DNA of 64,000 nt from positions 2,108,001 through 2,172,000 of the forward strand of contig NZ_CP026167.1 of assembly GCF_002902985.1 (NCBI RefSeq), given 5' to 3'. This stretch comes from Leclercia sp. LSNIH1. Lineage in GTDB: Bacteria > Pseudomonadota > Gammaproteobacteria > Enterobacterales > Enterobacteriaceae. Shown one piece after another: positions 58,033 through 58,745 of the stretch. A program made the translations under genes and the position numbers. How positions within the stretch are numbered: the first letter of the stretch is position 1; each line of letters starts with the position of its first letter. The notes below the pieces were generated by a model. The model did no database searches, was not told where the DNA came from, and saw nothing but the letters and a program-made list of their open reading frames with translations.

Positions 58033-58745
58033 TTATATTTTGTCCTGATTGACACGGGATGAAAGCTCCTGATGGCTCTCTTTTCGCTCGCTGTAACGAT
58101 CCGCAAGATAACCGGTTTGTCCCTTAAGCAGCAGTGTGATTTTAAACAGCTCCTCGGCTACATCGACGATGCGGTCATACCATGACGAAGGTTTCATTCG
58201 GCCGTTTTCGTCGAACTCTTGCCATGCCTTGGCTACGGAGGACTGGTTGGGGATCGTAAACATCCGCATCCAGCGACCCAGAATGCGCATCTGATTCACG
58301 GCATTGAAGGACTGCGAACCGCCGCAAACCTGCATTACCGCAAGCGTTTTACCCTGTGAAGGACGCACTGCGCCTTCACTTAAGGGTATCCAGTCGACTT
58401 GTGCCTTCATAACTGCGCTCATTGCGCCATGCCGCTCCGGTGAACTCCACACCATCCCGTCACACCATCTGACAAGACCGCGCAGCTCGGTAACTTTAGG
58501 GTGCGTGTCCGGCGCATCATCCGGCAGGGGTAAACCGGAGGGGTTAAAGAGTTTCACATCCGCGCCCATCGCCGTCAGCAGGCGACCGGCTTCCTCCGCG
58601 GCAAAACGGCTGTAGGAGCGCTCCCTTACTGAGCCATACAGGATCAGAATCCGTGGCGGCTCCTGCAGGTGCAGGCGTTCGGCAATGTGTTGATCAAAGC
58701 ATTCAGTATTCAGTATTCAGTATTCAGGGCAGGAAATTGTTCCAT
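58033..58745 (-). pseudogene. arsH: arsH, frameshifted by a 7-bp tandem repeat
   Basis: NADPH-dependent FMN reductase/organoarsenical oxidase gene. The ATG at 58745 has a strong ribosome site (GGAGGAG) and reads MEQFPALNTEY, then TGA at 58710-58712. The downstream frame carries the rest of ArsH (LILYGSVRERSYSRFAAEEA, WSSPERHGAMSAVMKAQ, SGGSQ-like CGGSQSFNAVNQMRILGRW, LADRYSERKES). The break lies exactly at three perfect copies of GTATTCA (plus strand, 58706-58726) next to a diverged copy, GCATTCA. With two units fewer the frame would read MEQFPALNTECFDQH and be intact. Confidence 0.85.
58699..58726. repeat. 7-bp tandem repeat inside arsH
   Basis: GCATTCA followed by GTATTCA three times. The unit length is not a multiple of three, so each change of one unit shifts the arsH frame; one or four perfect copies would keep it open. 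Confidence 0.9.

What the first reader, a model, noticed from the sequence alone, without database searches (positions are those of the whole stretch)
58699..58745. arsH switched off by a 7-bp tandem repeat: possible phase variation of an arsenic gene
The intact start codon and ribosome site are followed by three perfect GTATTCA units that push the frame into a TGA after 11 residues. Removing two units restores an arsH reading frame that flows straight into the conserved protein. The unit is not a multiple of three, so slipped-strand mispairing could switch the gene on and off. Repeat-driven switching of a metalloid-detoxification gene would be unusual in enterobacteria. It may instead be a simple dead allele.
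Basis: partly seen in the sequence, partly recalled or inferred. Interest (0 to 1): 0.72.

Follow-up and report, generated by a model that had tools for sequence, protein, structure and literature searches.

The report
Arsenic gene broken by stuttered repeat
A chromosomal copy of an arsenic-detoxification gene has been knocked out by a short stuttered DNA repeat found in none of the relatives examined, while an intact copy sits elsewhere in the same genome, so it looks like an ordinary recent dead allele and not an on/off switch.

Summary
On the minus strand arsH has an intact ATG and ribosome site, then a perfect period-7 array (58701-58727, 3.86 copies, unit TGAATAC) that puts TGA at codon 12. 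None of 300 simulated windows held even a 21-nt period-7 run.

Phase variation is not supported. None of 118 distinct relative arsH sequences (137 loci) has more than one exact unit in tandem. None of 161 matching plasmid records and none of 7 matching E. coli records covers 80% of a 61-nt query through the array. All three frames of the array hold TGA, so longer arrays do not cycle ON and OFF. The same genome has an open 232-residue arsH on contig C4. The rest of the broken gene is undecayed (dN/dS 0.025 to the nearest relative): the break is recent.

Best reading: slippage at a natural 13-nt near-duplication, present at the same codon in 6 of 118 distinct relatives, added two units and killed this allele, probably tolerated because of the second copy. 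Mixed unit numbers within the strain or species could not be tested.

The parts
58750..58756 (-). ribosome-binding site of arsH (GGAGGAG), intact
   Evidence: read
58743..58745 (-). arsH start codon ATG, intact
58701..58727 (-). perfect period-7 tandem array, 3.86 copies (unit TGAATAC read on the minus strand; three full units at 58706-58726)
58710..58712 (-). premature TGA at codon 12, inside the array
58033..58701 (-). remaining arsH frame, 222 codons and stop, undecayed; out of frame with the ATG
58033..58569 (-). longest ORF with a standard start in that frame (178 aa); begins at ArsH residue 55 and so lacks the FMN phosphate loop (residues 33-41 of the plasmid copy)
58831..59151 (+). arsR, ArsR/SmtB metalloregulator, 106 aa, intact, divergent from arsH
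59196..60485 (+). arsB, arsenite efflux pump, 429 aa, intact
60498..60923 (+). arsC, glutaredoxin-dependent arsenate reductase, 141 aa, intact
57962..60992 (.). approximate span of the ars module that occurs as a block of about 3.0 kb at other places in three species of the genus
   Evidence: L133, L134, L135

Best explanation
A loss-of-function allele of chromosomal arsH made by replication slippage. The arsH start region naturally carries an imperfect near-duplication, CTGAATACTGAAT, at codons 7-11. Slippage there added 14 nt (two more 7-nt units, in one step or two), which shifts the frame and brings in a TGA at codon 12; translation stops after 11 residues and no standard start codon in the ArsH frame follows before residue 55, so no working ArsH is expected. 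arsR, arsB and arsC next to it stay intact. The loss is recent and is probably tolerated because contig C4 of the same genome carries an open arsH. Shown: array, stop, open remainder, absence from the relatives examined, second open copy. Inferred: slippage as the cause, the order of events, relaxed selection, absence of protein.
For: Array and stop. Two units longer than relatives: 60 of 60 listed rows; 56 of 60 listed rows (1 row is 16 nt shorter, 3 rows stop inside the array). Private to this allele: 109 of 118 distinct relatives have no exact unit and 9 have one, none more. Seed at the same codon in 6 of 118 distinct relatives. Recent: 31 synonymous and 3 nonsynonymous differences over 222 codons to the nearest relative, dN/dS 0.025, no other stop. 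Second copy: C4:80872-81725, 232-aa ORF. No in-frame standard start before residue 55, and the FMN phosphate site GSXRXXS lies before it (PMC9137774, passages seen).
Against: No other strain of the species and no reads were available, so population variation at the array is untested. One genome stands for each species in the genome search. A wrong assembly at the array is possible. The low dN/dS dates the whole branch and not the break itself.
Confidence: 0.88

Rival explanations
1. True phase variation: the array is a contingency locus, and unit number changes often enough that cells of this strain toggle ArsH.
For: Unit length is not a multiple of three, the array is perfect and near the start codon, and it meets the 3-repeat screening length used for 6-10-nt units in Neisseria (PMC5084427, passage). 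Heptanucleotide phase variation exists in Neisseria pglE (PMC7157529, passage).
Against: No relative shows the array or an intermediate unit number. Every frame of the array contains TGA, so length change does not cycle one frame in three as in usual contingency loci. An open second arsH in the genome masks any switch. Only 3.86 copies.
Confidence: 0.05
2. Assembly or base-calling error: the real chromosome has the short, open form.
For: Repeats are where assemblies err; the allele is seen in one genome only.
Against: A clean gain of two perfect 7-nt units with no other error in the 222 following codons is not the usual error type; the second arsH copy has a different sequence at this spot, so cross-copy misassembly would not produce it. 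Judgement, not a test.
Confidence: 0.05
3. Footprint of a departed insertion sequence (target duplication left behind).
For: Target duplications of a few bases are common (recalled).
Against: No insertion-sequence remnant is seen between the copies; the gained sequence is exactly two copies of a unit already there and a seed for slippage exists in relatives.
Confidence: 0.02

Closest known systems
Short-array slippage in E. coli genes, such as the three-unit hexamer of mutL
   Same: A short intragenic array of about three units gains or loses units and changes gene function (PMC3477136 introduction, passage seen).
   Different: mutL units are 6 nt and keep the frame; here the 7-nt unit breaks it. 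The mutL array is described as a natural feature of the gene; here the array is private to one allele.
Contingency loci with heptanucleotide repeats, such as Neisseria pglE
   Same: 7-nt unit in the gene, frame-dependent expression (PMC7157529, one passage).
   Different: No unit-number variation was found among relatives, few copies, and a stop in every frame of the array.
Short-homology-dependent replication slippage as a source of small indels between bacterial strains
   Same: Repeats below 30 nt, RecA-independent slippage proposed (PMC2884548, passages).
   Different: Nothing essential; this is an instance with a frame-breaking result.
ArsH (NCBIfam TIGR02690; solved structures 2q62, 7ple, 2fzv)
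   Same: The remaining frame and the C4 copy are ArsH by family model and sequence.
   Different: The window's copy cannot be read as one protein from its start codon.

Membership tests
SSR-type phase-variable (contingency) locus | tandem array of non-triplet units in or before a reading frame | tested here: met
SSR-type phase-variable (contingency) locus | unit number differs between related genomes carrying the gene | tested here: not met
   0 of 118 distinct relatives have an array of two or more exact units; 0 of 161 plasmid records and 0 of 7 E. coli records cover 80% of the array query. Only the window allele differs. Strains of the same species not available.
SSR-type phase-variable (contingency) locus | array conserved at the gene as a standing feature | tested here: not met
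   only a 13-nt near-duplication is shared, by 6 of 118 distinct relatives
SSR-type phase-variable (contingency) locus | length change cycles the frame between ON and OFF | tested here: not met
   all three frames of the array contain TGA
SSR-type phase-variable (contingency) locus | high-frequency reversible change within a culture | not testable with these tools
   needs raw reads or colonies
ArsH (TIGR02690) | family model above curated cut-off | tested here: met
   178-aa ORF 313.4 bits, cut-off 292.25, profile positions 56-219 of 219
ArsH (TIGR02690) | N-terminal FMN phosphate loop joined to the rest in one frame from a start codon | tested here: not met
   frame from the ATG ends at codon 12; loop at residues 33-41, first standard start of its frame at residue 55

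The most novel reading that the evidence does not exclude
The array is unstable in this lineage and a minority of cells express chromosomal ArsH, a first repeat-driven switch of an organoarsenical gene in enterobacteria.
Probability: 0.05. Interest if true: 0.6.

Novelty: new member of a known kind. Interest (0 to 1): 0.15.

Why it matters
It shows how a tandem array that looks like a phase switch in one genome can be told from a simple slippage mutation: by absence from relatives, by stops in all frames of the unit, and by a second copy of the gene. If the array were really switching, it would extend phase variation to metalloid detoxification; nothing here supports that. It also warns that an arsH annotated from similarity alone can be dead while a plasmid copy does the work.

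Tried and rejected
Phase variation was tested by looking for other unit numbers in genome collections and found none. Results that did not fit the plain -14 pattern: of the 16 records covering 80% of the query, 7 are 14 nt shorter and 9 are 7 nt shorter; these 9 are a 67.7%-identical lineage whose compared stretch includes the intergenic region. One was opened and its arsH is annotated as an ordinary gene. In one search one record (Lelliottia) is 16 nt shorter; its arsH is annotated as an ordinary gene. Two relatives have early stops of other kinds (L146 after 204 residues, L152 after 128), not linked to an array.

A scan of viral contigs for the array gave 6 contigs; one search found the 21-nt array pattern in those 6 and in the window's own copies only, of 129 loci. 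They were not studied further: none of the six gave an ArsH match, so they look unrelated.

Restart of translation downstream was considered: no standard start codon in the ArsH frame precedes residue 55. Mobile-element footprint was considered and set aside (no remnant). A literature search for an ArsH phase switch: 'arsenic resistance' + 'phase variation' + 'tandem repeat' gave one Listeria survey (listing only); a search with arsH and five switch terms, any two, listed 8 of 1,339 papers, none with arsH (so it does not exclude one further down); 'arsH' + 'frameshift' gave 21 papers, 15 listed, of which two were opened at passages and neither reports a broken arsH there. A lacI hotspot search gave no paper.

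Full report
WHAT IS THERE. The window holds an ars cluster: arsH on the minus strand, and arsR, arsB and arsC on the plus strand. ArsR, ArsB and ArsC are complete by ORF and family model. arsH starts with an intact ATG (58745-58743) after a GGAGGAG ribosome site. A perfect period-7 array follows at 58701-58727 (3.86 copies). Reading from the ATG gives MEQFPALNTEY and then TGA. Beyond the array the ArsH frame runs open for 222 codons to its stop. The longest ORF with a standard start in that frame is 178 aa and scores above the curated cut-off of TIGR02690 ArsH, but begins at profile position 56.

IS IT CHANCE. In 64 kb this is the only array of period 5-12 with about 2.9 or more perfect copies; one 12-nt period-4 array also passed. 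In 300 first-order Markov simulations of the window, none had a period-7 run of 27 nt, and none of 21 nt. A 20-nt core of the array occurs in the whole 5.41-Mb genome only here.

RELATIVES. In the script over the loci then held, 142 loci had an ArsH match. Five were the window's own locus, leaving 137 loci with 118 distinct sequences (first 700 nt). The longest tandem of exact TGAATAC was 0 units in 109 and 1 unit in 9; the window has 3. The longest period-7 run of any kind near the start was 9-15 nt in relatives against 27 nt in the window. Among the 35 distinct sequences with 90% or more amino-acid identity to the C4 copy, 26 had 0 and 9 had 1. Many of the 118 are distant (down to about 66% identity), so the 35 are the more telling set. 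One of the 137 loci is the same genome's C4 copy.

PUBLIC PLASMIDS AND E. COLI. One search found 195 plasmid records; all 60 listed rows are 14 nt shorter than the 461-nt query over the matched part. One search, on 131 nt, found 146 records and listed 60 at even steps: 56 are 14 nt shorter, one is 16 nt shorter, three end inside the array. With a 61-nt query centred on the array, 0 of 161 plasmid records and 0 of 7 E. coli records cover 80% of it. In one search, 16 of 681 E. coli records cover 80% of the 461-nt query: 7 are 14 nt shorter, and 9 of a 67.7%-identical lineage are 7 nt shorter across a stretch that includes the intergenic region. These tools warn that records very near the window's own genome may be left out.

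THE SEED. Six of the 118 distinct relatives carry CTGAATACTGAAT at exactly the place of the array, codons 7-11. A near-duplication of this kind is what slippage needs; the window's array is that element with two more units. Repeats shorter than 30 nt are held to change by replication slippage in E. coli (PMC2884548, passage). That slippage made this one is inference.

WHY IT IS NOT A CLASSIC SWITCH. The array read in its three frames gives LNTEY*ILN, *ILNTEY* and EY*ILNTE: a TGA in each. Usual contingency loci have units readable in the ON frame, so that one count in three is ON. Here an array of this size stops every frame. Switching by length within a long array would therefore not restore the gene periodically.

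A SECOND COPY. The genome has three places similar to the ars cluster: the window; contig C4:80872-83310 with arsH, arsR and arsB; and C1:1428978-1430458 with an arsB fragment and arsC. The C4 arsH is an open 232-aa ORF with FMN_red from profile position 1. C4 is 128,920 bp; its chrA-ars stretch (L113 1-7311) matches plasmid records at up to 99.9%, so it is probably a plasmid. The cell therefore probably still makes ArsH, which explains why the break is tolerated; which came first is unknown.

HOW OLD. Against the nearest relative (94.9% nucleotide identity over the 222 codons) there are 31 synonymous and 3 nonsynonymous differences, dN/dS 0.025; the 21 relatives' rows printed run from 0.012 to 0.057. 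There is no further stop or frameshift. The gene was under constraint for nearly all of that branch, so the break is recent.

WHAT IS LOST. ArsH has the FMN phosphate motif GSXRXXS in its first beta-alpha loop (PMC9137774, passages); in the C4 copy GSVRERSYS is at residues 33-41, and the first standard start after the array corresponds to residue 55. A protein begun there would lack the loop. ArsH is reported as an organoarsenical oxidase (Chen et al. 2015, as cited in PMC8169936, passage) and as an organoarsenic reductase (PMC9137774, abstract and passages).

VERDICT. Observation confirmed; phase variation not supported; ordinary recent slippage null allele in a genome with a second copy. What remains open is unit-number variation inside the strain and species, which needs reads.

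IN PASSING. The ars module (about 57962-60992) is a block that lies at other places in three species of the genus. At the window's site two other species (L131, L132) hold a CD-NTase-like gene with a four-transmembrane effector gene, both matching PADLOC and Pfam CBASS-type models for L131, and a third (L136) holds 7.6 kb with other genes, including a large ORF that looks by eye like a helicase (no family scan). The interval between the hyc end and the T6SS side seems to be a changeable site for defence and resistance genes.

Noticed in passing
window 58000-60969; L131 1946-4391; L132 1944-4378; L136 1803-9392: The interval between the hyc end and the T6SS side is variable in the genus: ars module here, a CBASS-like cyclase plus 4TM effector pair in G409 (family models) and its homologues by eye in G423, other genes in G402.
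   Followed up: partly
window 57962-60992; L133, L134, L135: The whole ars module of about 3.0 kb lies as one block at 92-94% identity at other places in three species, which suggests it moves as a unit; no terminal repeats of 10 nt or more were found between the two edge stretches tested.
   Followed up: partly
G000:C1:1428978-1430458 (L130 3479-4960): Third ars remnant in the genome: 5'-truncated arsB, apparently interrupted, followed by an arsC ORF of 141 aa.
   Followed up: no
L113 (G000:C4:76000-92000): The C4 ars copy lies beside chrA and a resolvase-like gene, and is followed by IS1-like ORFs instead of arsC (names by eye and from the matching records).
   Followed up: no
L146 (G411) and L152 (G440): Two other species of the genus have arsH with early stops (after 204 and 128 residues), so arsH loss recurs by different routes.
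   Followed up: no
L124-L129 (viral contigs): Six viral contigs hold the same 7-nt array by sequence, with no ArsH nearby.
   Followed up: no
window 63109-63588: Hcp-like type VI secretion tube protein (TIGR03344), with two unassigned ORFs before it at 61151-61606 and 62206-62895.
   Followed up: no
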